Shown one piece after another: positions 482-11,687 of a DNA stretch of 64,000 nt. The translations under genes and the position numbers were made by a program. This DNA is from Buttiauxella gaviniae (GTDB taxonomy: Bacteria; Pseudomonadota; Gammaproteobacteria; Enterobacterales; Enterobacteriaceae), in assembly GCF_040786275.1 (NCBI RefSeq), contig NZ_JBFMVT010000002.1, positions 1 through 64,000 on the forward strand, read 5' to 3'. The stretch's first letter is position 1. Each line of letters opens with the position of its first letter. The notes under the pieces were generated by a model. The model was not told where the DNA came from, ran no database searches, and saw only the letters and a list, made by a program, of their open reading frames with translations.

Positions 482-982
482 TCAGGATGCGTTGAGGACT
501 GCTTTATTCGCCTCAAGAGCATCAACCGCACATTGCTGATCCAAATGACCGCCCGGCGCACCGCCAATACCAATTGCGCCGATAGTCTGATTATCGACTT
601 TAACCGGTACCCCACCCCCTAATAGCAGGAAGCCTGGAATGTCACGCATATTCTGCGCACCGGCGTTATCCTGCGCACTCTTCATAACGTCGCCAGTGGC
701 ATTTCTGGTGGTCAGAGCGGTATACGCTTTCATACGGCTGGCTTCAACGGTATGAGGGCCTGCGTTATCCATGCGTTTTACTATTTTCACAACGCCTGCA
801 CGGTCCACAACGGTTACCGCAACATTGTAGTTTTTGGCGCTACAAGCCTGAATGGCGCTTTGAGCGAGCTTATCGGCAAACTCCAGTGAGAGATTTTTTT
901 CAGTCAACACGCTGCTGGCAAAAGCGGGCATTGCTACGGCGCTACTGAATAAGGCTGCCGCTAACAAGATGGATTTTTTCAT
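482..982 (-). CDS. Secreted GlcG/HbpS-family (DUF336) protein
   Basis: The 166-residue product belongs by eye to the GlcG/HbpS (haem-degrading/haem-binding, DUF336) family. ATG 982 is chosen because it directly follows AGGGAAG and opens a classical signal peptide (MKKS, hydrophobic core, cleavage after AFA at about residue 22); an in-frame codon at 997 is an alternative. The mature part has the family pattern: VVDRAGVVK, the glycine-rich GGGVPV, then IGAIGIGGAPGG and a D..CA motif near the end. E. coli GlcG is cytoplasmic and shorter, so a periplasmic form is notable. It lies 101 nt downstream of a response regulator on the same strand, with a perfect palindrome (1063-1080) between them. In Streptomyces, HbpS is an extracellular haem-binding accessory protein of the SenS/SenR two-component system. 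A similar role here is inference. Confidence 0.75.
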   Translation of the reverse strand: MKKSILLAAALFSSAVAMPAFASSVLTEKNLSLEFADKLAQSAIQACSAKNYNVAVTVVDRAGVVKIVKRMDNAGPHTVEASRMKAYTALTTRNATGDVMKSAQDNAGAQNMRDIPGFLLLGGGVPVKVDNQTIGAIGIGGAPGGHLDQQCAVDALEANKAVLNAS

Positions 983-1062
983 GGTTTCTTCCCTCAACTC
1001 GGAGTGTTTAATTTACAGGAGTTACGGTAATCAACTATTGAAGACGAAACTATTCGGGCGAA

Positions 1063-1080
1063 TACCTGGTAAACCAGGTA
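1063..1080. promoter_or_regulatory. 18-bp perfect palindrome upstream of the HbpS-like gene
   Basis: Arms TACCTGGT (1063-1070) and ACCAGGTA (1073-1080) are exact complements around AA. The site lies 4 nt beyond the stop of the response regulator and about 80 nt upstream of the HbpS-like start, where an activator would bind. It is a candidate operator of the adjacent response regulator. I saw no second copy upstream of the kinase gene. Confidence 0.4.
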
Positions 1081-1083
1081 ATT

Positions 1084-1698
1084 TTACGTAGTCCCTTTAA
1101 GACCGCCATAGATTTTAATCAGCTTAGCTAGCGAGTTAATTTCCAGCCTGGCAAATAAACTGGCGCGATGCGCTTCGACAGTTCGTGGCGACAACGAAAG
1201 ATCTCGCGCCATCTCTTTGTTGGATTTTCCCTGAATAATCAGCGCCATGACTTCCTGTTCGCGGGCTGAAAGTGTTGCCAGTTTCGCCTGTAAATCAGCC
1301 TGGCTTTCCCGTTGTTGCTGGCTCTCTTTTTGCTGTTCCAGGGCGGCACCCACCGTTTCAAGCAGCAAATCGGCGTCGATGGGTTTGGTCAGAAACTCAA
1401 AGGCTCCGTTCTTAAATGCCCGACGGCAAAGATCGATACTACCGTGTCCCGTCATCATGATAACCGGCAAGGTACTGCCCATTTGCTGCCAGTTTTCCAG
1501 CAGCGTAATGCCCGATTTTCCCGGCATCCGAATATCCAGCAGCAAGCAGCCGTTCAGGCTTTGCAAATCAGGTTCAGATTCCTGAAAGCGTTGCACGCTA
1601 TCGTAGGTTTGCGTCTCCCAGCCCATCGTTGCCAGCAGCGCACTTAACGAAAAGCGTATTGCTTCGTCATCGTCAATAAGATAGATACGTTGCCCCAT
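1084..1698 (-). CDS. FixJ-type two-component response regulator
   Basis: This is a 204-residue response regulator. The N-terminal receiver domain (about 1-120) has acidic residues D9-D11, the phospho-acceptor Asp55 in LLLDIRMPG, Thr83 and Lys105. A glutamine/glutamate-rich linker (about 121-140) leads to a LuxR-type helix-turn-helix (about 141-200, LSAREQEVMALI and RTVEAHRASL). The arrangement matches FixJ/TtrR-type regulators. Start ATG 1698 overlaps the kinase stop codon by one base (TAATG), showing translational coupling and a kinase-regulator operon. An in-frame upstream codon would add 14 residues inside the kinase gene and is unlikely. The target genes are unknown; the palindrome at 1063-1080 and the HbpS-like gene just downstream are the obvious candidates. 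Confidence 0.85.
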   Translation of the reverse strand: MGQRIYLIDDDEAIRFSLSALLATMGWETQTYDSVQRFQESEPDLQSLNGCLLLDIRMPGKSGITLLENWQQMGSTLPVIMMTGHGSIDLCRRAFKNGAFEFLTKPIDADLLLETVGAALEQQKESQQQRESQADLQAKLATLSAREQEVMALIIQGKSNKEMARDLSLSPRTVEAHRASLFARLEINSLAKLIKIYGGLKGTT

Positions 1699-3020
1699 TA
1701 CGCCCCCTTTTGAGTAAGTGGGAAAATCACCGTAAAACATGCGCCTCCGGCGGCACTGTTTTCAGCCTGAATGCTGCCATTAAGCCGCTGAACTAAGGTT
1801 TCGGTCAGCGCCATTCCAAGCCCAAGCCCCTCTTTGCGGGTCGTGAAGAAAGGCATAAAAACTTGCTCCAGCGCCTGTTCGCTCAGCCCTGGGCCGCCAT
1901 CCGTTACCGTCAAAATGATACTGTTTGCGGTTTCGCTAGCATTGATCTCGACCCAGGCTTTCCCCTGCGCTATTTGCTGCTGCGCCTGAATCGCATTATT
2001 GAGCAGGTTATGGAATATCTGCTCAATCCCCAACGGAGAGGCTATCAGCGGTGGCAGTGTTTCAGGAGTGTGATTAATCACTGTGACTTTACCGCGCTCA
2101 ATTTCATTTCCTAAAAGTATCACCACACGGTCCCAAACCTCCCGCAGGTTAACTGGCTGTAAGGGCTGCTCCTCGCTATTCAATTTTTCCCGGAACGCCA
2201 GCAACAGCGCGCTGATTCGTTTTGTTTGCATAACTGAAGCATCAAGCAACGGTTGTGCTTTTTCGGCCTGCTGATGGGCAATAAGCCGTTGTGCCGTTTG
2301 TGAATAACTGAGAATAGCGGTGAGCGGCTGATTTAGCTCATGCACCATCCCCGCCGCTATCTCACCCATCGCATTCAGGCGCGCCAGCTCTGAAAAGTGA
2401 GCGCGTAAATCGGCGATATTGCGCTGGCGTTTGGTCATCTGATATTGAGTATAAAAGTAGATTGCCGCCGCCCAGAAGCCGCCCACCAGGACCAGCATTA
2501 ACCAGGGCAAGCCTCGCCAGTCAGGATTATTGGTTACCGCAAGATTGAGTGGTTGAGAAGGACTTGCCACCTCTTTCTCCCAGCGCCACCAATCCCCTTT
2601 CCCTTCAGCGCCCTGAGTCAGAAGCGGTGTACCTCGCCAGCTTAAACTAAAGTGGCGAAATTTCTGCGTACGGACGAAATCAGCCAACAAGGTAGGTAAA
2701 TCAATGAGTAAAGAACCTTGCGGTGAATTTATCCAGTACGTTCCGGCTCGTGCGGGATTAATGTCCGGGCGCGGCGGTTCATGAGGCTTAGTTTGCCAAC
2801 GTAAAATATAGGGGAACTTTTGCTGCACAACCGCCGGGTCGCTGCTGTTAGAAAGCAGCGCGAGAATGACATCGTTTTGCGAAAGCTTAACCGTGATATC
2901 ACGATACAGAATCCGAAACTCCGCGCTTTGTTCCTCATACTGCTGATTCAACGCGTAGAAAACCACACCGCCGCCAGACAGCACGGTAAGGGTCAGCCAG
3001 ATGAGTACCTTTTTGAACAT
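1698..3020 (-). CDS. Membrane sensor histidine kinase
   Basis: The 440-residue kinase has a transmembrane segment at about 5-25, a periplasmic sensing region at about 26-170, a second transmembrane segment at about 171-192, a HisKA dimerisation domain with phospho-acceptor His227 (MVHELNQPL), and a C-terminal HATPase domain with an N box (HNLLNNAIQAQ), G1 (DGGPGLS) and G2 (GLGLGMAL). The sensing region matches no domain I can name. ATG 3020 is preceded by AGGGA; a GTG eight codons further upstream is possible. The gene overlaps its response regulator by one base. The ligand is unknown. The neighbouring periplasmic HbpS-like protein could act as the sensory partner, by analogy with SenS-HbpS. 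Confidence 0.85.
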   Translation of the reverse strand: MFKKVLIWLTLTVLSGGGVVFYALNQQYEEQSAEFRILYRDITVKLSQNDVILALLSNSSDPAVVQQKFPYILRWQTKPHEPPRPDINPARAGTYWINSPQGSLLIDLPTLLADFVRTQKFRHFSLSWRGTPLLTQGAEGKGDWWRWEKEVASPSQPLNLAVTNNPDWRGLPWLMLVLVGGFWAAAIYFYTQYQMTKRQRNIADLRAHFSELARLNAMGEIAAGMVHELNQPLTAILSYSQTAQRLIAHQQAEKAQPLLDASVMQTKRISALLLAFREKLNSEEQPLQPVNLREVWDRVVILLGNEIERGKVTVINHTPETLPPLIASPLGIEQIFHNLLNNAIQAQQQIAQGKAWVEINASETANSIILTVTDGGPGLSEQALEQVFMPFFTTRKEGLGLGMALTETLVQRLNGSIQAENSAAGGACFTVIFPLTQKGA

Positions 3021-3330: not shown

Positions 3331-3699
3331 ATGATGGAATATTTTGAGTTTGTCGAAACGCCAACATTTGTCAGGCAGCGCGAAGGTTTGCTGGATGATG
3401 ACACCTTCCAACAGCTTCAGGAGTATTTGATCAGGCAACATGTGGTCGGCGACACAATAAGGAACACCGGGGGCTGCAAGAAACTCAGATGGAATCGCCC
3501 CGGTACAGGAAAACGTGGCGGCGTGCGGGTTATCTATTACGCAGTGACTTCCAAAGGCCGGCTTTATCTGCTGACGATTTACGCAAAAAACGTCAAGGAC
3601 GATATGACGGAAGCGGAAAAAGCCGTATTCAAGCGGTTAACGGAACATCTGGATCAGGCATTATCAATTCTTCATCACGAAGATTTAAGGACAACATGA
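3331..3699 (+). CDS. RelE/HigB-type toxin
   Basis: The 122-residue product has the pattern of the HigB-2/RelE-like toxins. An N-terminal helical part (VETPTFVRQREGLLDDDTFQQLQEY) is followed by a basic strand region with CKKLRW and GKRGGVRVIYY, then LYLLTIYAKN and the C-terminal KAVFKRL helix. Such toxins are ribosome-dependent mRNA endonucleases. Start codons ATG 3331 and ATG 3334 are adjacent; AAGGA lies at the right distance for either. The toxin gene comes first and overlaps the antitoxin start (ATGATG at 3696). Toxin-first order is typical of the higBA group and differs from relBE. Confidence 0.8.
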   Translation: MMEYFEFVETPTFVRQREGLLDDDTFQQLQEYLIRQHVVGDTIRNTGGCKKLRWNRPGTGKRGGVRVIYYAVTSKGRLYLLTIYAKNVKDDMTEAEKAVFKRLTEHLDQALSILHHEDLRTT

Positions 3700-3989
3700 T
3701 GGATAAGCAACTTTTCGAAGAACTTGTGCAAAGCATGGAAGAGATGGTGGCTATTGAAAAAGGCGAAATGCAGCCAGCACGAGTCCATCGCCACGCAATT
3801 CCCAATGTAAAAGCTTTACGTGAAACCAGCGGTTTAAAACAAGAAGAGTTCGCCCAGGCGGTTGGCGTGAGCCCCTCTCTGGTACAAAGCTGGGAACAAA
3901 AGCGTCGAATTCCTTCCGGGCCATCACTCAAAATATTACTGATGCTGGAGCATAATCCGGCGGTGATTAATGTGCTGCTGGCGCTTTAA
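3696..3989 (+). CDS. HigA/NadS-type HTH antitoxin
   Basis: This 97-residue protein has an N-terminal toxin-binding segment (about 1-35) and a C-terminal Xre/Cro-type helix-turn-helix (about 42-97: LRETSGLKQEEFAQAVGVS, then LVQSWEQKRRIPSG). It starts inside the last codons of the toxin gene (ATG 3696 or 3699), so translation is coupled. It should neutralise the upstream RelE/HigB toxin and repress the operon through the inverted repeats at 3257-3301. No rho-independent terminator is obvious just downstream. Confidence 0.8.
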   Translation: MMDKQLFEELVQSMEEMVAIEKGEMQPARVHRHAIPNVKALRETSGLKQEEFAQAVGVSPSLVQSWEQKRRIPSGPSLKILLMLEHNPAVINVLLAL

Positions 3990-4305: not shown

Positions 4306-4413
4306 GATGCGCCGATGTCTGCTAAGGTCGGTACGCCAACCCTATCCAGCCCACCACCAGCGAACTTGGCGTTTCCTGCGGTGGTTTTAAAACGCTTAGC
4401 AGAGAACATCCGT

Positions 4414-4845
4414 ATGAAATCTTTATTTTCGAATCCAGTAGTAATCAGCACCAAAAATCTCGACATTATCGATCTCGCCGAACGCTGCGAATTATTAGCC
4501 GATATACTGATTGATAGCGAAACCCCAGCCGAATGCAAAGTGCTTTGCCAACATCTTTATGCCCATCTGGATGCGTTAAAAGAGAATCTTGATAAACCAT
4601 TGTCTACCGCACTTATCGAGCAATTATCTGTCAATCATCCATCAGAATTCCCCGCTTCCCAGGTGTTTGCGGATTCCGATGATTTATGTGATTACAGCCA
4701 GGCGCTAACGCACGTGCTTATCTGCCATGCGTTATCACGACAAACGTCACAGCTAATCAGCGGGCTGTTGATGAGGCTGGTCAATACTCTGGTAGATGAT
4801 TTGAAAACGCCGCGATTCTTGCGGACTCAGGTTCAAATGGCGTAG
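4414..4845 (+). CDS. Ash/Icd-like phage-derived protein, uncertain
   Basis: From ATG 4414 the product is 143 residues, mostly helical in character, with no domain I can name. The frame is open upstream to 4306, and the stretch DAPMSAKVGTPTLSSPP before the chosen start resembles the N-terminal segment of Ash-family or Icd-like proteins of P4-type satellite phages. ATG 4315 (176 aa) is therefore a real alternative start; none of the starts has a strong ribosome binding site. The position downstream of a C4-like RNA and mini-ORF matches the immunity region of such phages. No integrase or attachment site is visible, so this would be a leftover or a domesticated immunity cassette. Function unknown. 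Confidence 0.5.
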   Translation: MKSLFSNPVVISTKNLDIIDLAERCELLADILIDSETPAECKVLCQHLYAHLDALKENLDKPLSTALIEQLSVNHPSEFPASQVFADSDDLCDYSQALTHVLICHALSRQTSQLISGLLMRLVNTLVDDLKTPRFLRTQVQMA

Positions 4846-4894: not shown

Positions 4895-6319
4895 TCACAC
4901 CTTCTTCTTAGGTTTCTTCGTTTGCGCCGCACGTTCCGCTTTGATTCTTTCCAGTAAAGCAGCGGCGCTGTTTTCCCCGCTGATTAAATCCGGATTGTCT
5001 TTGCGCCACTGTTCGGTCAATTCACCGCGAAACGCTTTAGCCAGAATCGACTGAGTAAGGTTATTGACGCGCTTTTGTGCTTCAGCCACCTGCTTTTCGA
5101 TATTGTCGGCCCAGGCAAACAGTTTTTCGACTCGTCTAAGAATTTCTTTCTGCTCAAATTCACCTGGTAATACCACAATTAGATTTTTTAGATCTTTAGG
5201 AGATAAATTTGGCTGGAGCGTTTCTGACAACTTATCTGAAACTTGAACTTTGAAATAATCAGACTGGAATAGTACTTCAAAAAAATATTTCTCAGTAGAA
5301 TTGGAGAAACTAAATTTACACACTCGTTGATTTAAAACCCCCACGGGTTGTCCCTCAGGGTATCTACATACTTTTAATGTATCATTAGTTATTGGTCGCG
5401 TCAGAGCCATTAAGACATCACCAGGTTTTATTTGATATCGTTCAAATTGCGTGAGATATGGCAACGGAAGGAACTGTTGATTTTTTATTTCAAAATCCCC
5501 ATATTGTACATTCGATATTTTTATTACTGGCACGCCATCAGAGTCGTTAAACTCCGTACTTTTAAATGCATTCCCTGATATAATACTACATGAATCACTC
5601 AAGACTTTAACTTTCCAATTAGTAGAGAAACTCGTCGAAATATTATATTTTGAAAGATTGAGATTCACACTATGATAAGTATGACTACCCCTCCAGTCAG
5701 CAGTTAATCTGCCACTCACCGCAGCACTCAGCACCGCCTGACGGAAACGTTTTAGGCTTTGCGGGATTTGATCGAGACGGGTTTTGATACTGTCGACTAG
5801 GGCTATAATAACATCGAGCTTAGCCGTAATAACTTTCTGCTCCTCGTAAGGAGCGAAAGGGATAACCAGCGACTCAATTGCTTTACCAGATATATTTGGC
5901 TGCGCCCCACCATAAGCAATTTTTAATATATCACTTGATAAATATGATAATAAATAATTTCTGTATGTAATGTTTCCATATTTTTCAGCGCAGAACATCA
6001 GCTTACCGACACGTTGATTTTGAAGTGCAGGGATTTTGTCTATAAATAGACCAAGTTTTCCTGTCGTTGCACCTGACATTGCAATCAACAAATCACCCTT
6101 TATAATTTCGAACCCAACTGGTGCATTTTGGACATGGACAGCTTTTTCCGATGTTGCAACACTACCATCCAGATCTGATATTCTTATCACCGGATAGGTA
6201 GTGTCACTGGGCAGCACATAATCATTGCTTTTAAAAGCGAACCCGTTTTTCAAATACAAATATTCGCCTAAATCCGTAGCCACCCACCCATCAGGCAAAT
6301 TCCCAAATGCCTCAGCCAT
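4895..6319 (-). CDS. hsdS: Type I restriction-modification specificity subunit HsdS
   Basis: The 474-residue subunit recognises the bipartite DNA target for the HsdM/HsdR complex. Two target recognition domains are visible: TRD1 at about 5-165 (begins LPDGWV, with FAFKSNDY) and TRD2 at about 235-395. Each is followed by a helical spacer: KLDVIIALVDSIKTRLDQIP with AVLSAAVSGRLT after TRD1, and VEKLFAWADNIEKQV with SILAKAFRGELTEQWR after TRD2. The tail is lysine-rich. ATG 6319 overlaps the hsdM stop (TGATG); a GTG directly before it is an alternative start. Both TRDs (roughly 5160-5680 and 5880-6240) are visibly richer in A+T than the spacers and the other hsd genes, as expected for exchanged recognition domains. 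The target sequence cannot be read from this. Confidence 0.95.
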   Translation of the reverse strand: MAEAFGNLPDGWVATDLGEYLYLKNGFAFKSNDYVLPSDTTYPVIRISDLDGSVATSEKAVHVQNAPVGFEIIKGDLLIAMSGATTGKLGLFIDKIPALQNQRVGKLMFCAEKYGNITYRNYLLSYLSSDILKIAYGGAQPNISGKAIESLVIPFAPYEEQKVITAKLDVIIALVDSIKTRLDQIPQSLKRFRQAVLSAAVSGRLTADWRGSHTYHSVNLNLSKYNISTSFSTNWKVKVLSDSCSIISGNAFKSTEFNDSDGVPVIKISNVQYGDFEIKNQQFLPLPYLTQFERYQIKPGDVLMALTRPITNDTLKVCRYPEGQPVGVLNQRVCKFSFSNSTEKYFFEVLFQSDYFKVQVSDKLSETLQPNLSPKDLKNLIVVLPGEFEQKEILRRVEKLFAWADNIEKQVAEAQKRVNNLTQSILAKAFRGELTEQWRKDNPDLISGENSAAALLERIKAERAAQTKKPKKKV

Positions 6320-7923
6320 CACTTCCCTTCCCCCAACAGCTCATCCAACAGCACTTTCTGCGCATCGGCTTCGTCGCCTGCGCCCAGCTCGCGCATTAGC
6401 GCGTCCAGCTCACCGATTGCCTGCACCAGCTCGCTCATCGCTTCTGCGGCTAAAACGCCCGGTTCTGGCAGGTTGGCGGCATCTACGCTGCTGTCATCTT
6501 TCAGCCAGGAGATATCCAGTGAATCGCCTTTAGTATCGCGGATCCAGTCGCGAGTAAACTTGCGCCAGCGGCTGGTGGCAAGTTTGTCGGTAACGTCTTT
6601 GTTTTCTTCGCTGTCTGGCGCTTCAATCTCTGCGGCGTTAAAGCTCCATTCGCCTTCTTCGCGCGGGCTTTTCTCATAGACGCTTTCAAACGGTTGCAGA
6701 TGTTTTTCGGTAAACGGTGTGCGTTTACCAAAGCTCGGCATATTGGTACGCAGGTCGTAAACCCAGACGTTTTCGGTGCAGTTTTCGCTCTGTAATTTGT
6801 CGGTGGCGCTGCCTTTGGTGAAGAAGAGCACGTTGGTTTTCACGCCCTGGGCGTAAAAAATGCCGGTTGGCAAACGCAGGATGGTGTGCAGGTTGCATTT
6901 GTTCATCAAGTCGCGGCGCACGCTGGTGCCAACGCCCGCTTCAAACAGCACGTTATCCGGCAGCACGACGGCGGCGCGGCCACCCGGTTTCAGGTTGCGG
7001 TAAATGTGCTGTAGGAAAGCCAGTTGTTTGTTGCTGGTGGAATACGTCAGGTCGTCGCGCGTGATGCTCGCTTCCCCGCCTTTTGACGTACCGAACGGTG
7101 GGTTCGCGAGGATGATATCCGCGCGCGGTAAGCTGGTGCCCGCCATTCCCAACGCGTTGCCCTGGTGCACCACGCCTTCGTCGTCCCCTTCCATGCCGTG
7201 CAGTAAACAGTTCATCAGCGCAAGGCGGCGGGTAGATGGCACCAGTTCCACACCGACATAAGCTTTATTTTTCTGGAAGGCTTTGTCTTTGGCCGACAAA
7301 TCATAAAGATCGTCGGTTTGTTCTTTGATGTACTGATCGGCAGCAATCAGGAAACCCGCCGTCCCGGCAGCCGGATCCTGAATCACTTCGCCAGGCTGTG
7401 GCTTAATGCAGCGCACCATGCTGTTGATTAACGCACGTGGGGTAAAGTACTGGCCCGCACCGGATTTCGTTTCCCCGGCGTTCTTCTCCAGCAGGCCTTC
7501 GTACAAATCACCCAGCCCGTCTTTCTGGGCGCTAAACCAGTCAATCTGGTCAAGGGTGCGGATCATTTGTTCCAGGTGGCGCGGCTCACGCAGGCGGGTT
7601 TGTGCATCGGCGTAAATGGCACTGATGAGCGGGTCGGCATGGACCCGATTATCTTCGGCGTCTTTGCCGGTTGAGAGGGCAAACAGAATTTTTTTGTAAT
7701 CGTTCAGTAATGCTACGCCCGATTTGCCATTCAGATCGGTCCAACGGCAGCCTTCCGGCAGCGTGTGTTTATCCAGCGTTTCCGCTTCGGTATTTTCATG
7801 CACCATTTTGATAAACAGCAGCATGACCAGTTCGCCGACATAATCGCTGTAGTTGATGCCGTCGTCGCGCAGCACATCACACAGGTTCCAAAGCTTTTGT
7901 ACGATATCGTTATTGTTGCTCAT
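6319..7923 (-). CDS. hsdM: Type I restriction-modification methyltransferase HsdM
   Basis: The 534-residue N6-adenine methyltransferase protects the host by modifying the sequence chosen by HsdS. An N-terminal HsdM helical domain (about 1-140) precedes the methylase core with the SAM-binding motif DPAAGTAGFL and the catalytic NPPF motif (IILANPPFGTSKG). ATG 7923 gives the usual N-terminus (MSNNNDIVQKLW); an in-frame codon nine residues upstream lacks support. It overlaps hsdS by one base and follows hsdR by 78 bp. Divergent amino-acid usage in motif I (AAG instead of the commoner ACG) is a small variation and not evidence of inactivity. Confidence 0.95.
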   Translation of the reverse strand: MSNNNDIVQKLWNLCDVLRDDGINYSDYVGELVMLLFIKMVHENTEAETLDKHTLPEGCRWTDLNGKSGVALLNDYKKILFALSTGKDAEDNRVHADPLISAIYADAQTRLREPRHLEQMIRTLDQIDWFSAQKDGLGDLYEGLLEKNAGETKSGAGQYFTPRALINSMVRCIKPQPGEVIQDPAAGTAGFLIAADQYIKEQTDDLYDLSAKDKAFQKNKAYVGVELVPSTRRLALMNCLLHGMEGDDEGVVHQGNALGMAGTSLPRADIILANPPFGTSKGGEASITRDDLTYSTSNKQLAFLQHIYRNLKPGGRAAVVLPDNVLFEAGVGTSVRRDLMNKCNLHTILRLPTGIFYAQGVKTNVLFFTKGSATDKLQSENCTENVWVYDLRTNMPSFGKRTPFTEKHLQPFESVYEKSPREEGEWSFNAAEIEAPDSEENKDVTDKLATSRWRKFTRDWIRDTKGDSLDISWLKDDSSVDAANLPEPGVLAAEAMSELVQAIGELDALMRELGAGDEADAQKVLLDELLGEGK

Positions 7924-8001
7924 TTTTCGTCCTGAATTAGCCTTCTGCAAACGCAGAAGGCTAAATATGAATGGAAATCTTGGGGCGGGAGTTTAGCAGA
8001 A

Positions 8002-11000
8002 TCAGGCGCTTTTTTGTGGCCAGATTGCCTCGTTTAGATCATCGAGTACGCTATCAAGCTGGTCTTCCAGAATTTTGTTCAATTGCTTCGCGCCGCCATC
8101 GTCGGCAAAGCACTGGTTGACGAACTGCTTGTCAATAATCACTTCGTGCACCAGTTGTTTTGCCAGCCGGTCTAACCATTTACGCTGTGGCTTTGTCCAC
8201 GCGTGGCTGGCGTAAATTTCATTCATCGCCAGGGAAACGCGTTGTTCAAACGGCACCAGCGGTTCCCCCAGCGCAGCACGGCGGATATGGCCAATAATGC
8301 TGGCGGCGATATCCTGATTAGTCTGGTTGCGTACGGCAGTTTGCAGTTTCGCTTCGGAGTAGCCCGCTTCATCCAGTAGCAAACGAATTTCTTTAAGTTG
8401 CTCACGTGTCAGGTCACGCGGTTTATTCACCACGACCGATAAGGCAATTGACTGGTTTACCTGCTGGTGAATAAATTCGTTAAAGCTGTCCAGGTAATCT
8501 TCCGGGCGGCTATGCACGCCATAACTTTGGCTGCGTTCTTGCAACTCATCGTAATGGTTGGAGATAACCGGGCGATACAGGCTCCCCGCAATGTGTTTAA
8601 CGTCTTCCAGTTGTGCCAGCAAGCCGCTGTGTTTACGCAAAAATTCAGAGGCCTGGCGTGGACCAATGGTATGCAGATGTTGGTGCAGGTTCTTCGGTTC
8701 AACGCCCCATAATTCGTGTAACTCTTCCAGCTTTTCTTGCAGCTCTGGATTGGTTTCTGCTTTCTTCTGCGCTTTACGCAACACGCGCATGAGCTTCTGG
8801 CTGAGTTCACTCAGCACTACGTCGGCCTGGCTGTCATCGCCATTTTCACCAGGGCTAACGAGTGCTTTTGCCAACAGTTCTGGGTCTGAAAGTTCCCCGA
8901 CCAGTTGATCAAGGGTGATGTTGGGATCTTTAACCAGAGGCTGCATGGTGTTGACGTCACTCAACGCCTCGTAGATATCAACCGGATCGTAAATGCGGAA
9001 GACCGTTTTACCGATGTCATCGCAGCGGCGTGTAGCGCGGCCAATCATCTGTTCGTATAAAATGCGTGATTTCACGCGGCGCATAAACACCAGGTTGCAG
9101 ATGGTGGGTACGTCTATACCAGTGCTGAGCAGGTCAACCGTAATGGCGATATTAGGGTAGCGTTCGTTTTTGTAGAGCTTGATTAGCGTGTCGACTTTAT
9201 CGCTTTTACCGGTGATTTTTTCGACTGCGGCCTGGTTGTAGTTGTCATATGCTTGCTGGAATTCTTCGTCCAACAGGCGTTTTACCATGTCGGCATGCTT
9301 GTCGGTAGCACAGAAAATCAGCGTCTTTTCCTCACCAAACGGGTCAAGTTCTTTAACCAACTGCTGGCAAATGACGCGGTTGAAGTTTTCACTGATGACC
9401 TTGCGGTTAAAAGCATCAACTTCAAAATCCAGTTCATCTTCAAGTTCATCAACTTCAACTTCGCCGGTGTGAACGTTAATGGCGTGTACTTCGCTGCCTT
9501 TATCAAAATGAATGCCGTTTTGCGTCAACAAAGTTTGATAACGAATAGGCGGCTCATGGTCGATAAGCCAGTCGTCCGCAACGGCTTCGCGGTAGGAATA
9601 GACATAAACCGGCTTACCAAAAATTTCACTGGTGTGTTTAGCTGGGGTCGCCGTCAGGCCGATTTTTACCGCATCAAAATAGTCCAGCACACGGCGGTAG
9701 CTGGAAAGATATTGGCTGGCATCACGGGTGGCTAATTCGCCCTCTGTCATTTCCTGGTCAAGCGTATAACCCCGGTGCGCTTCATCAATAATTATGCAGT
9801 CGTACTGATCAACGGGCGGAGGGTTATCCGAAGCGAAAATGCGGCTAACCATGGCTTGTACCGTAGCAACCTGAACTCGGGTTTCTACTTCCGGAGCCAT
9901 ATCCCCCATTTCCGCAATGTTGTAGCTTTGCGCAAGCGTGAGGGTTTGCTCCAGCGGCGCTTCTTTAAATGCGTCAGTCGCCTGGTTGCCAAGTGATGTA
10001 CGGTCAACAAGGAAAAGAATACGCTGGAAACGTTCAGTTTTAAGGAAGCGATAGATCAAGCCAATGATTGTTCGCGTTTTCCCTGTTCCCGTTGCCATTG
10101 CCAGAAGCGCGGTACGAATGTTACGAGAGAGCGTATTCTCCACCGCAATAATGGCTTTTTCCTGGTAATCACGCAGATGCAAATAGCCGAAAGCTTCTTG
10201 CTGGAGTTTTTGTTCAGCTTTTTCTTTGCTGCGTTTTAATTTGTCTAACAGACCGTCTGGCGTATGAAACTGCTGGAGTGCCCGGCGGATATTGTTGTGC
10301 TCACGGACATCGCGAAACCAAGTGCCGGATTGTTCAGCGAGTTGTGGTACATACGCCCTTCCGTTACAGGAATAAACAAACGGTACGTGATAATGGCCGT
10401 CTGATTCATCTGCCCAGGCCACACTTCGACCCGCCAGCTCCCATGCCCCTATAATCGGTGCGGCCAATTTAAAACCTTTGCTGTAGCGCTCTGCCTGGGG
10501 TATTTTCCCCGCAACATCTTCGTTTTCTTTTTTGGCTTCAACTACCGCCATTGGTGTCAGGCCACGGAATAACACGTAATCCGCTCGCCCTTTTTTACCT
10601 TTGTATTCCGTTGGCCATTCGGCAATCGCTTTATCAACGTTCTTTTCCGGGCGGGCACCTTTTGCCCATGTCGACTCTTTACTATCTGCGGTCCAGCCTG
10701 CTTCCGTAAGTTTTTGATCAATGAGCAGACGAGTTAATTCTTCGTTCAGGGAGATATATTTGCTGGCAAGCTGAGTTTTCTTCGAAACTTGCTGTTTCTG
10801 TTCGTTCGCCTGTTTCTCATCCTTGGCCGCTAGCTGCTCCTGAAGCACCTTCAGCTTCGCTTCGTATTCCTGCTGAAGCTGCAACAGTTGCTCTTCTTGC
10901 TGCTTAGATGCGGTTGCCAGCGTTTTAGACTCATTTTCCATCTCATAAGCCAGCGCTTCATAATCTGCTTTCTCTTTTGCTAACAGTTCCTGAAGTTGTT

Positions 11001-11526
11001 GGCTGGAATCTAACTGAACATTAGCTGTATTGAGTTCACTTTTTAAGTTGTCAATTTCGGTCTGAAGCTCTCTGAGCTGCATACTTGGATCGGCAGGAGG
11101 ATTAAAGGGGCCAGGCTTAAAGGCTGTGCCTTGTTTACCAAAAGACTGGTGGAACCAGATAGCCAATGCGCGCGCAATTTTTAAACCTTCCAGCGCTTCT
11201 TTATGTTTTGTTCTGAACTGGTGTGTGGCTTTATTACCTTCAACCCGTAGCGTATGGAATAAATCCTTTACCATCGGCTCAAATTTTAATTCTCGTTGCA
11301 GGCGGAAAAGCAGATCCGCCTGAGAAAGCTGCTCATCAAATTCAATCCCCGCCAGAGCAGCAATATGTTGCGCTAGAGCTTCACCCAACTGACGTAGCTT
11401 GATTAACGTTGTATTTGGATCGCTGGGAAAGATGTTTTCTGCCGCAGAAGCTATTTGCACAAAAAGAGGATCATGCTCGGCAAGAAAATTGAAATTCGCC
11501 GAAACGGCATTAGGTATTGATTTCAA
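8002..11526 (-). CDS. hsdR: Type I restriction endonuclease subunit HsdR
   Basis: This is the motor and nuclease subunit, 1174 residues and similar in layout to EcoKI HsdR. An N-terminal DUF4145-like region (about 10-130, with PNTTLIKLRQLGEA) is followed by a long coiled coil (about 155-260), the nuclease domain (VDKAIAEWP, YVLFRGLTPMAVVEAKKEN) and a superfamily 2 helicase core with Walker A MATGTGKT, the DEAH box (IIDEAHRGY) and motif VI (QMIGRATR). I chose the TTG at 11526: it has AGGGAG about seven bases upstream and gives MKSIPNAVSANFNFL, colinear with known HsdR N-termini. An upstream TTG (11568) adds 14 unmatched residues. The gene is first in the operon hsdR-hsdM-hsdS, with its promoter in 11527-11687. 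Confidence 0.93.
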   Translation of the reverse strand: MKSIPNAVSANFNFLAEHDPLFVQIASAAENIFPSDPNTTLIKLRQLGEALAQHIAALAGIEFDEQLSQADLLFRLQRELKFEPMVKDLFHTLRVEGNKATHQFRTKHKEALEGLKIARALAIWFHQSFGKQGTAFKPGPFNPPADPSMQLRELQTEIDNLKSELNTANVQLDSSQQLQELLAKEKADYEALAYEMENESKTLATASKQQEEQLLQLQQEYEAKLKVLQEQLAAKDEKQANEQKQQVSKKTQLASKYISLNEELTRLLIDQKLTEAGWTADSKESTWAKGARPEKNVDKAIAEWPTEYKGKKGRADYVLFRGLTPMAVVEAKKENEDVAGKIPQAERYSKGFKLAAPIIGAWELAGRSVAWADESDGHYHVPFVYSCNGRAYVPQLAEQSGTWFRDVREHNNIRRALQQFHTPDGLLDKLKRSKEKAEQKLQQEAFGYLHLRDYQEKAIIAVENTLSRNIRTALLAMATGTGKTRTIIGLIYRFLKTERFQRILFLVDRTSLGNQATDAFKEAPLEQTLTLAQSYNIAEMGDMAPEVETRVQVATVQAMVSRIFASDNPPPVDQYDCIIIDEAHRGYTLDQEMTEGELATRDASQYLSSYRRVLDYFDAVKIGLTATPAKHTSEIFGKPVYVYSYREAVADDWLIDHEPPIRYQTLLTQNGIHFDKGSEVHAINVHTGEVEVDELEDELDFEVDAFNRKVISENFNRVICQQLVKELDPFGEEKTLIFCATDKHADMVKRLLDEEFQQAYDNYNQAAVEKITGKSDKVDTLIKLYKNERYPNIAITVDLLSTGIDVPTICNLVFMRRVKSRILYEQMIGRATRRCDDIGKTVFRIYDPVDIYEALSDVNTMQPLVKDPNITLDQLVGELSDPELLAKALVSPGENGDDSQADVVLSELSQKLMRVLRKAQKKAETNPELQEKLEELHELWGVEPKNLHQHLHTIGPRQASEFLRKHSGLLAQLEDVKHIAGSLYRPVISNHYDELQERSQSYGVHSRPEDYLDSFNEFIHQQVNQSIALSVVVNKPRDLTREQLKEIRLLLDEAGYSEAKLQTAVRNQTNQDIAASIIGHIRRAALGEPLVPFEQRVSLAMNEIYASHAWTKPQRKWLDRLAKQLVHEVIIDKQFVNQCFADDGGAKQLNKILEDQLDSVLDDLNEAIWPQKSA

Positions 11527-11687
11527 AGCACAACTCCCTTGATGAAAAACAAAGAAAATACGCTGCAACGGAAGGAAAGAATAGGTGAAGCAAAGGAAAT
11601 CATACTGTTAAGCGAACGCATATCAAGTGATATGCGTCAACTCATTAGCTATTGATGATATGAATTATTGAATTGTGACGTTTACGG

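What the first reader, a model, noticed from the sequence alone, without database searches (positions are those of the whole stretch)
482..3020. Possible HbpS-SenS-SenR-like three-component sensor in an enterobacterium
A membrane histidine kinase, a FixJ-type response regulator and a signal-peptide-bearing GlcG/HbpS-family protein lie in a row on one strand, the first two overlapping by one base. In Streptomyces, secreted HbpS binds haem and controls the SenS kinase, which signals through SenR. Here the regulator is FixJ-like, so this would be an independently assembled version. The window also holds a full haem uptake operon. Seen: gene order, signal peptide, domain motifs. Known: the Streptomyces system. 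Inferred: that the three proteins work together in sensing haem or redox state.
Basis: partly seen in the sequence, partly recalled or inferred. Interest (0 to 1): 0.62.

Follow-up and report, generated by a model that had tools for sequence, protein, structure and literature searches.

The report
Dedicated two-component switch for HbpS
A sensor kinase, its regulator and a periplasmic protein of the haem-binding HbpS family form one conserved unit in many Proteobacteria, in which the regulator very probably switches on the HbpS-like gene through one highly conserved DNA site; what the sensor detects is still unknown, and haem is not supported.

Summary
Confirmed: HK (1698-3020), FixJ-type RR (1084-1698) and a secreted HbpS-family protein (482-982) lie in a row on the minus strand of a Buttiauxella chromosome. 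The unit is no local oddity. Of 398 sampled genomes of the phylum, 19 have the full-length kinase, and all 19 carry HK-RR-HbpS in this order; 77 of the 80 nearest HbpS relatives in named genomes have both HK and RR matches upstream. The wider HbpS family mostly lacks the pair (2 of 88 loci); the unit's HbpS proteins form one clade. A 30-bp operator (26.6 bits) lies at the RR stop codon, before a fixed-distance -10 element. It occurs once per genome in 11 of 12 Buttiauxella; the twelfth has lost the unit. In two genomes where hbpS lies apart, it keeps the operator. The kinase has a predicted Cache sensor and is HisKA, unlike the SenS-like kinase (HisKA_3). Residues behind haem, iron and dityrosine chemistry in Streptomyces HbpS are mostly replaced. 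Shown: conservation, operator. Inferred: activation, ligand, function. Haem sensing is unsupported.

The parts
482..982 (-). hbpS-like gene: exported HbpS/GlcG-family protein, 166 aa; predicted main (perhaps only) target of the regulator
   Evidence: PF03928 114 bits; signal segment 3-26; 14-row alignment with invariant C47, C151, G75, P76, H77, T78
1084..1698 (-). FixJ-type response regulator (receiver + LuxR/GerE HTH), 204 aa
   Evidence: PF00072 75.7 bits, PF00196 66 bits; NCBIfam FixJ 195 bits, under its cut-off of 255
1698..3020 (-). membrane histidine kinase (HisKA + HATPase_c), 440 aa, one-base overlap with the regulator gene
2505..2957 (-). extracytoplasmic sensor region of the kinase (residues 22-172), predicted Cache fold
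   Evidence: AlphaFold2 pLDDT 86.1, pTM 0.80; VIA-align Z 10.8, rmsd 2.7, 147 residues aligned to the KinD sensor 4jgp_B; Foldseek alone weak, best E 1.5e-3
1061..1090 (-). predicted regulator operator TACGTAAAATTACCTGGTTTACCAGGTATT (half-sites GTA / TAC / GTA)
   Evidence: 26.2 bits, only site over 12 bits in the window; 23.5 bits against 7.3 for the next best with a matrix built without Buttiauxella and its nearest relative; once per genome in the genus
1051..1056 (-). conserved CGAATA box downstream of the operator, near the -35 position
   Evidence: anchored alignment of 42 non-redundant promoters
1024..1029 (-). predicted -10 element (TACCGT here; consensus TAnAnT at a fixed distance from the operator)
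   Evidence: first T in 36, A in 41 and last T in 41 of 42 promoters; function inferred

Best explanation
The three genes are a self-contained envelope-signalling circuit. The membrane kinase binds an unknown small ligand through its own periplasmic Cache domain and phosphorylates the FixJ-type regulator. The regulator then binds one three-half-site operator (about -73 to -44 of the predicted start) and activates a promoter with a conserved -10 and no clear consensus -35 hexamer, so that the periplasmic HbpS-like protein is made (with an outer-membrane barrel or an ankyrin-repeat protein where such a gene follows). HbpS is thus first of all the output. It most likely binds or neutralises what the kinase reports (a small molecule, metal or oxidative product in the periplasm), so closing a feedback loop. 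Shown: gene content, conservation, operator, -10, a split of the unit in two genomes with the operator staying at hbpS. Inferred: direction of regulation (activation), ligand, protective role, feedback.
For: Order HK-RR-HbpS in 19 of 19 genomes with full-length HK among 398 of the phylum, in own + 13 relatives and on plasmids of Salmonella, Duffyella, Pantoea, Variovorax, Paracoccus, Maritalea and Defluviimonas. 77 of the 80 nearest HbpS loci have both HK and RR matches upstream. HbpS of the unit is one clade, 93/73 support, 0 of 500 shuffles as clustered. Distance matrices of HbpS, RR and HK correlate 0.84-0.90 over 37 non-redundant units, 0 of 2000 permutations as high. Operator: 26.6 bits against 8.5 in shuffled promoters and 11.5 upstream of HK, seen in 53 of 54 non-redundant promoters; once per genome in 11 of 12 Buttiauxella, absent in G008, which keeps only a kinase remnant. 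Orphan hbpS in L242 and L270 keep it (16.8 and 33.3 bits with both left out of the matrix) while HK-RR sit elsewhere in the same genome. Fixed-distance -10. Cache-like sensor.
Against: No expression, binding or ligand data. Distance correlation can also come from shared species history. In B. cenocepacia L047 the HK-RR is followed by a carbonic anhydrase and a barrel protein, no HbpS match was found in the locus, and the operator-like site lies before the barrel gene, so HbpS is not the only possible output. In Shimwellia L219 no kinase match was found in the genome, yet RR and hbpS stay. One non-redundant locus (L276) shows no operator although HK, RR and HbpS are there. Sites also lie upstream of the kinase in L250 and L271 and L286, so autoregulation exists in some lineages. 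A second core-only match in the own genome lies inside a gene I read as tssC, 129 bp before an hcp-like gene (names recalled); it scores under 12 bits and was set aside. Sites in alphaproteobacteria score lower (10-18 bits). The single-target claim rests on one pattern search per genome; weaker targets could be missed.
Confidence: 0.72

Rival explanations
1. Streptomyces-like input model: the HbpS-like protein is itself the detector. It binds haem or iron or is oxidised in the periplasm and then touches the kinase sensor to switch it; the regulator keeps hbpS topped up, as SenR~P does.
For: HbpS family membership; tight linkage, and correlated divergence of HbpS and the sensor region (r 0.845); in S. 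reticuli HbpS controls SenS and SenR~P activates hbpS (PMC3184428, passages).
Against: The kinase has its own predicted Cache domain. Thr113 (haem) is Phe in 80 of 81 rows; Glu81 is Arg/Lys in 62 of 81; Tyr77 is V, I, L or A in all 81; Asp141 is His/Asn/Ser in 77 of 81; Lys83 and Asp143 are kept in 81 of 81. In L242 and L270 hbpS has left the HK-RR locus.
Confidence: 0.2
2. Metabolic model: the kinase is a carboxylate (or other nutrient) sensor, and HbpS is a catabolic helper that handles a metabolite or a reactive aldehyde, like GlcG, PduO-C or EfgA relatives.
For: Best sensor fold match is KinD with pyruvate; DctB, PctA and CqsR also rank. Some flanks hold transport or catabolic genes: amino-acid ABC in Pantoea, a tricarboxylate transporter in Paracoccus, genes I read as fumarase and a dicarboxylate transporter in Cedecea and close relatives, names recalled. 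EfgA of the same family binds formaldehyde (PMC8153426, passages).
Against: Flanking genes change from genus to genus. Within the fetched flanks (about 6 kb each side) no second site over 14 bits lies at a transporter: the extra sites are mirror copies of the palindrome, a neighbour inside the same promoter (L225), or lie before the kinase (L250, L271). A shared fold does not tell the ligand.
Confidence: 0.25
3. The genes are merely neighbours and hbpS is unrelated to the two-component pair.
For: In the wide family hbpS mostly lies elsewhere (2 of 88 distinct loci have the pair).
Against: 77 of 80 and 19 of 19 linkage, one clade, one operator per genome, operator kept when the genes separate.
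Confidence: 0.02

Closest known systems
HbpS-SenS-SenR of Streptomyces (three-component redox/haem system)
   Same: Secreted HbpS-family protein encoded beside a kinase-regulator pair; LuxR/GerE-type regulator in both; SenR~P activates hbpS (PMC3184428, passages), as predicted here.
   Different: Kinase is HisKA with a predicted Cache sensor here, HisKA_3 without a detected sensor family in the S. chartreusis relative, and BLASTP finds no significant match (best E 0.43); genes co-directional here, divergent there; signature residues differ. The Introduction of PMC4991794 (read) says only hbpS-like genes of a number of actinobacteria are clustered with senS and senR.
FixL-FixJ / TtrS-TtrR type two-component systems
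   Same: FixJ-type receiver-HTH regulator, kinase core of the AtoS/ZraS/TtrS/FixL kind.
   Different: All below their equivalog cut-offs: FixJ 195 of 255, TtrR 146 of 290, AtoS 152 of 646, TtrS 118 of 750.
MSMEG_0243/0244/0246 of Mycobacterium smegmatis
   Same: Exported haem-binding protein next to a two-component pair (PMC7516205, passages).
   Different: MSMEG_0243 is described there as a homologue of Rv0203; the passages report no effect of the deletions in the haem, gas and radical tests, and altered biofilm in the triple deletion.
GlcG / PduO-C / EfgA / NahX (PF03928 proteins)
   Same: Same sequence family; solved relatives 2a2l, 5cx7, 6bws, 9jth.
   Different: Metabolic or cytoplasmic contexts (PMC8153426, passages); no dedicated kinase-regulator pair known to me (recalled).

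Membership tests
HbpS-like protein family (PF03928) | Domain score over the curated cut-off | tested here: met
   114.3 bits, cut-off 25
Functional HbpS of Streptomyces | Haem site Thr113 | tested here: not met
   Phe in 80 of 81 unit rows (position counted by me on the alignment from the E78/K83 numbering in PMC3754957, passages)
Functional HbpS of Streptomyces | Internal iron motif E78xxE81 with K83 | tested here: not met
   E80xxR83 in the window; Glu at the E81 position in 7 of 81 rows; K83 kept in 81 of 81
Functional HbpS of Streptomyces | Tyr77 (dityrosine) and twin-arginine export | tested here: not met
   V, I, L or A at the Tyr77 position in 81 of 81 rows; the window signal MKKSILLAAALF... 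has no twin arginine
Functional HbpS of Streptomyces | Octamer, haem binding and degradation | not testable with these tools
   needs purified protein
HbpS-SenS-SenR system | hbpS-like gene next to a kinase and a regulator gene | tested here: met
HbpS-SenS-SenR system | SenS-type (HisKA_3) kinase | tested here: not met
   HisKA 33.3 bits here; HisKA_3 60.2 bits in the kinase beside an hbpS gene 81% identical to that of S. reticuli. That this kinase is SenS rests on gene neighbourhood; SenS itself was not fetched
HbpS-SenS-SenR system | Gene orientation of the actinobacterial cluster | tested here: not met
   hbpS divergent from kinase-regulator in S. chartreusis L293, one relative only; co-directional here
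HbpS-SenS-SenR system | Regulator activates hbpS | tested here: inconclusive
   conserved operator and -10; no expression data
HbpS-SenS-SenR system | HbpS modulates kinase autophosphorylation | not testable with these tools
   -
FixJ equivalog (NF006900) | Score over cut-off 255 | tested here: not met
   195.1 bits
TtrR equivalog (NF040749) | Score over cut-off 290 | tested here: not met
   145.9 bits
Cache sensor domains | Fold of the extracytoplasmic region | tested here: met
   Z 10.8, rmsd 2.7, 147 of 151 residues with KinD 4jgp_B; the listed rows are mostly extracytoplasmic ligand-binding sensor domains (their Cache label partly recalled), Z 8.4 at rank 50. Fold evidence only: Foldseek best E 1.5e-3, no Pfam family matched

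The most novel reading that the evidence does not exclude
A Proteobacteria-wide signalling system, not described in the papers searched, in which a Cache-domain kinase and its FixJ-type regulator exist essentially for one promoter: they switch on a periplasmic HbpS-family protein, with lineage-specific partners (outer-membrane barrel, ankyrin-repeat protein, or carbonic anhydrase plus barrel in Burkholderia cenocepacia). HbpS-family proteins were thus twice independently wired to unrelated two-component systems, here as induced output that also closes the loop by capturing the kinase's own ligand or its toxic product.
Probability: 0.5. Interest if true: 0.72.

Novelty: new variant of a known kind. 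Interest (0 to 1): 0.6.

Why it matters
The published view (PMC4991794, Introduction) is that only hbpS-like genes of some actinobacteria cluster with kinase-regulator genes. Here a second, unrelated kinase-regulator pair is tied to an HbpS-family protein across three proteobacterial classes, with a DNA site precise enough to mark hbpS genes even where the genes have separated. This gives many HbpS-like proteins annotated 'heme-binding protein' a testable regulatory circuit, warns against reading haem sensing into that annotation, and offers a compact system (kinase, regulator, operator, product) for asking what HbpS-family proteins do in the periplasm.

Tried and rejected
Gene duplication: the second copy is contig-end redundancy. 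Link to the haem-uptake operon: no operator there. A disulphide as a mark of the unit: C47 and C151 are in 81 of 81 unit rows and 88 of 88 other rows, so not specific (rows not de-duplicated, L072 and L160 are the same gene). Second operator in the own genome: the core-only match inside tssC (name recalled) scores under 12 bits. OMP partner elsewhere in the own genome: none found at E 0.01 (an empty answer without a positive control). Foldseek with the whole kinase: the 50 rows shown were dominated by kinase cores, so the sensor region was predicted alone. E. coli: no match at near or distant DNA level. Flanking genes as a functional clue: mostly genus-specific. Literature: searches showed no paper on this unit in the held open-access library (listings seen; passages read in PMC4991794, PMC3754957, PMC7516205, PMC3184428, PMC8153426, PMC12889525, PMC6421349, and the Introduction of PMC4991794); PMC12889525 was a false hit (DUF3365) and PMC6421349 held only a table row. 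PMC4923194 was seen as a listing only. Ankyrin link: I recall P. aeruginosa periplasmic AnkB aiding KatB catalase; one search was seen as a listing only, so the oxidative-stress hint is weak.
Full report
What is there. On the minus strand of the window, in the order of transcription: a 440-residue membrane histidine kinase (1698-3020), a 204-residue FixJ-type response regulator (1084-1698, one-base overlap) and a 166-residue HbpS-family protein with an export signal (482-982). It sits between genes I read as sufA and ydiJ (names recalled), beside a type I restriction system. The second copy in the assembly is contig-end redundancy.

Is the trio a unit? Kinase relatives were sought with a profile (A2). 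In 398 genomes drawn over the phylum, matches split cleanly: 19 genomes (own included) with full-length matches of 308-747 bits, and nothing else above 241 bits; the lower rows listed cover mostly the kinase core. All 19 full-length kinases are followed by regulator and HbpS on the same strand; none of the 11 lower-scoring loci inspected from that scan (L180-L190, flanks of 1.5 kb) has HbpS. In 345 genomes of the order the full-length kinase occurs in 13 (one with a stop codon inside), again always with HbpS. Exceptions: L219 (regulator only), L242 and L270 (neither). In the wide family the picture is opposite: 98 of 274 genomes of the class have an HbpS-family match at E 1e-15, and of 88 distinct loci from the upper part of that list (89 fetched, L072 and L160 being one place) only 2 have the pair; five others (L095, L117, L136, L150, L153) have a weak match to some other kinase or regulator nearby. 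The unit's HbpS proteins, orphans included, are one clade (37 of 118 rows, 93/73, bootstrap not fully settled), and HbpS, regulator and kinase distances correlate (0.84-0.90, 37 non-redundant units).

The DNA site. Alignment of the gap between regulator and hbpS showed a conserved block that starts at the regulator's stop codon. An expectation-maximisation search in 54 non-redundant promoters gave a 30-bp motif of 26.6 bits (TNCGTAgaaCTACGGAG.....cGcGTAgT), seen in all but L276; shuffled promoters gave 8.5 bits and regions upstream of the kinase 11.5. In 1.1 Mb of loci the matrix finds as a rule one site over 14 bits per locus, just before hbpS; nine loci differ by extra sites (mirror copies, one neighbour inside the promoter, or before the kinase: L225, L250, L253, L254, L257, L266, L267, L271) or by none (L276), and in L047 the site is before the barrel gene (L047 counted apart). 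1 Mb of first-order random sequence holds one site over 14 bits. With Buttiauxella and its nearest relative left out of the matrix, the window site scores 23.5 and the next best 7.3. A pattern form occurs once per genome in 11 of 12 Buttiauxella genomes (own: twice by contig redundancy), each time at the place expected for the RR-hbpS gap from the kinase coordinates; G008, which keeps only a kinase fragment of residues 18-70, has none. Anchored on the operator, 42 promoters show a CGAATA box and a TAnAnT hexamer at a fixed distance, as expected of a promoter that an activator helps; the direction is inferred.

Natural separations. In L242 (with a barrel gene) and L270, hbpS is away from the kinase but keeps the operator (16.8 and 33.3 bits when both are left out of the matrix). 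Both genomes encode the full-length kinase and a regulator elsewhere, without HbpS beside them. On Shinella and Roseateles plasmids an hbpS-ankyrin pair without adjacent kinase also has operator-like sites (13.6 and 23.5 bits). This points to action in trans on hbpS.

What might it sense and do? The kinase's extracytoplasmic region has no Pfam match, but its model (pLDDT 86.1) aligns with extracytoplasmic ligand-binding sensor domains, best the KinD sensor (Z 10.8, rmsd 2.7, 147 residues); Foldseek alone is weak (E 1.5e-3). The ligand cannot be told from this. The Streptomyces features were mapped on the alignments (81 unit rows, not de-duplicated): haem Thr113 is Phe in 80 of 81, Tyr77 is V, I, L or A in all 81, Glu81 Arg or Lys in 62, Asp141 His, Asn or Ser in 77; Lys83 and Asp143 stay in all 81. 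Asp72 (80 of 81 against 9 of 88 other rows) and His77 (81 of 81 against 36 of 88) mark the unit's proteins. Fourth genes differ: an outer-membrane barrel in 12 of 80 loci and on Salmonella and Duffyella plasmids; an ankyrin-repeat gene in Variovorax and Maritalea (both with a signal peptide) and Defluviimonas; carbonic anhydrase plus barrel in B. cenocepacia without HbpS.

Comparison. The nearest Streptomyces relative on hand (hbpS 81% identical to S. reticuli over 125 residues) has a HisKA_3 kinase and a GerE regulator divergent from hbpS. The kinases give no significant BLASTP match (best E 0.43); the regulators are 24% identical. So this works like, but is not a member of, HbpS-SenS-SenR. 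PMC4991794 (Introduction read) states that only hbpS-like genes of a number of actinobacteria lie with senS and senR; I found no paper on the proteobacterial unit in searches of the open-access library.

Verdict. Real, conserved and coherent; the circuit regulator-to-hbpS is well supported by comparison alone, the haem story is not, and the ligand and the job of HbpS remain open.

Noticed in passing
window 1 to about 7366: Repeated at the end of the same contig (C2 from 4632724; 6277 bases compared, the rest inferred from the contig length): untrimmed circular assembly, not a duplication.
   Followed up: yes
window 4895-11568: Type I restriction-modification genes (specificity, methylase, EcoEI-type restriction subunit) beside the unit; no counterpart among the open frames listed at this place in the Buttiauxella agrestis locus L034.
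   Followed up: partly
window 3331-3989: RelE-like toxin and NadS-family antitoxin pair just upstream of the kinase gene; a similar RelE-like frame is also near the unit in L034 (8521-9000).
   Followed up: no
window 4315-4845: 176-residue frame with no Pfam or NCBIfam match but similar open frames near the unit in L035 (7684-8118) and L039 (10029-10463).
   Followed up: no
L047 8329-9932 (Burkholderia cenocepacia): A kinase-regulator pair of this type is followed by a PF00194 carbonic anhydrase and the barrel protein in place of HbpS; an operator-like site lies before the barrel gene.
   Followed up: partly
L048 8662-9351, L294 4501-5160, L296 4441-5109: An ankyrin-repeat gene follows hbpS in alpha- and betaproteobacterial units; the two read in full (L048, L294) have signal peptides.
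   Followed up: partly
L206, L212, L218: Unit with interrupted frames in Budvicia and in Candidatus Symbiopectobacterium genomes, as if decaying.
   Followed up: no
one search hits H42 and following: About 44%-identical HbpS relatives on many Escherichia albertii plasmids; context not examined.
   Followed up: no
L281 1501-1525 (own genome C2:3727101-3727125): Exact match to the operator core inside a gene I read as tssC, 129 bp before an hcp-like gene; low matrix score, taken as chance.
   Followed up: partly
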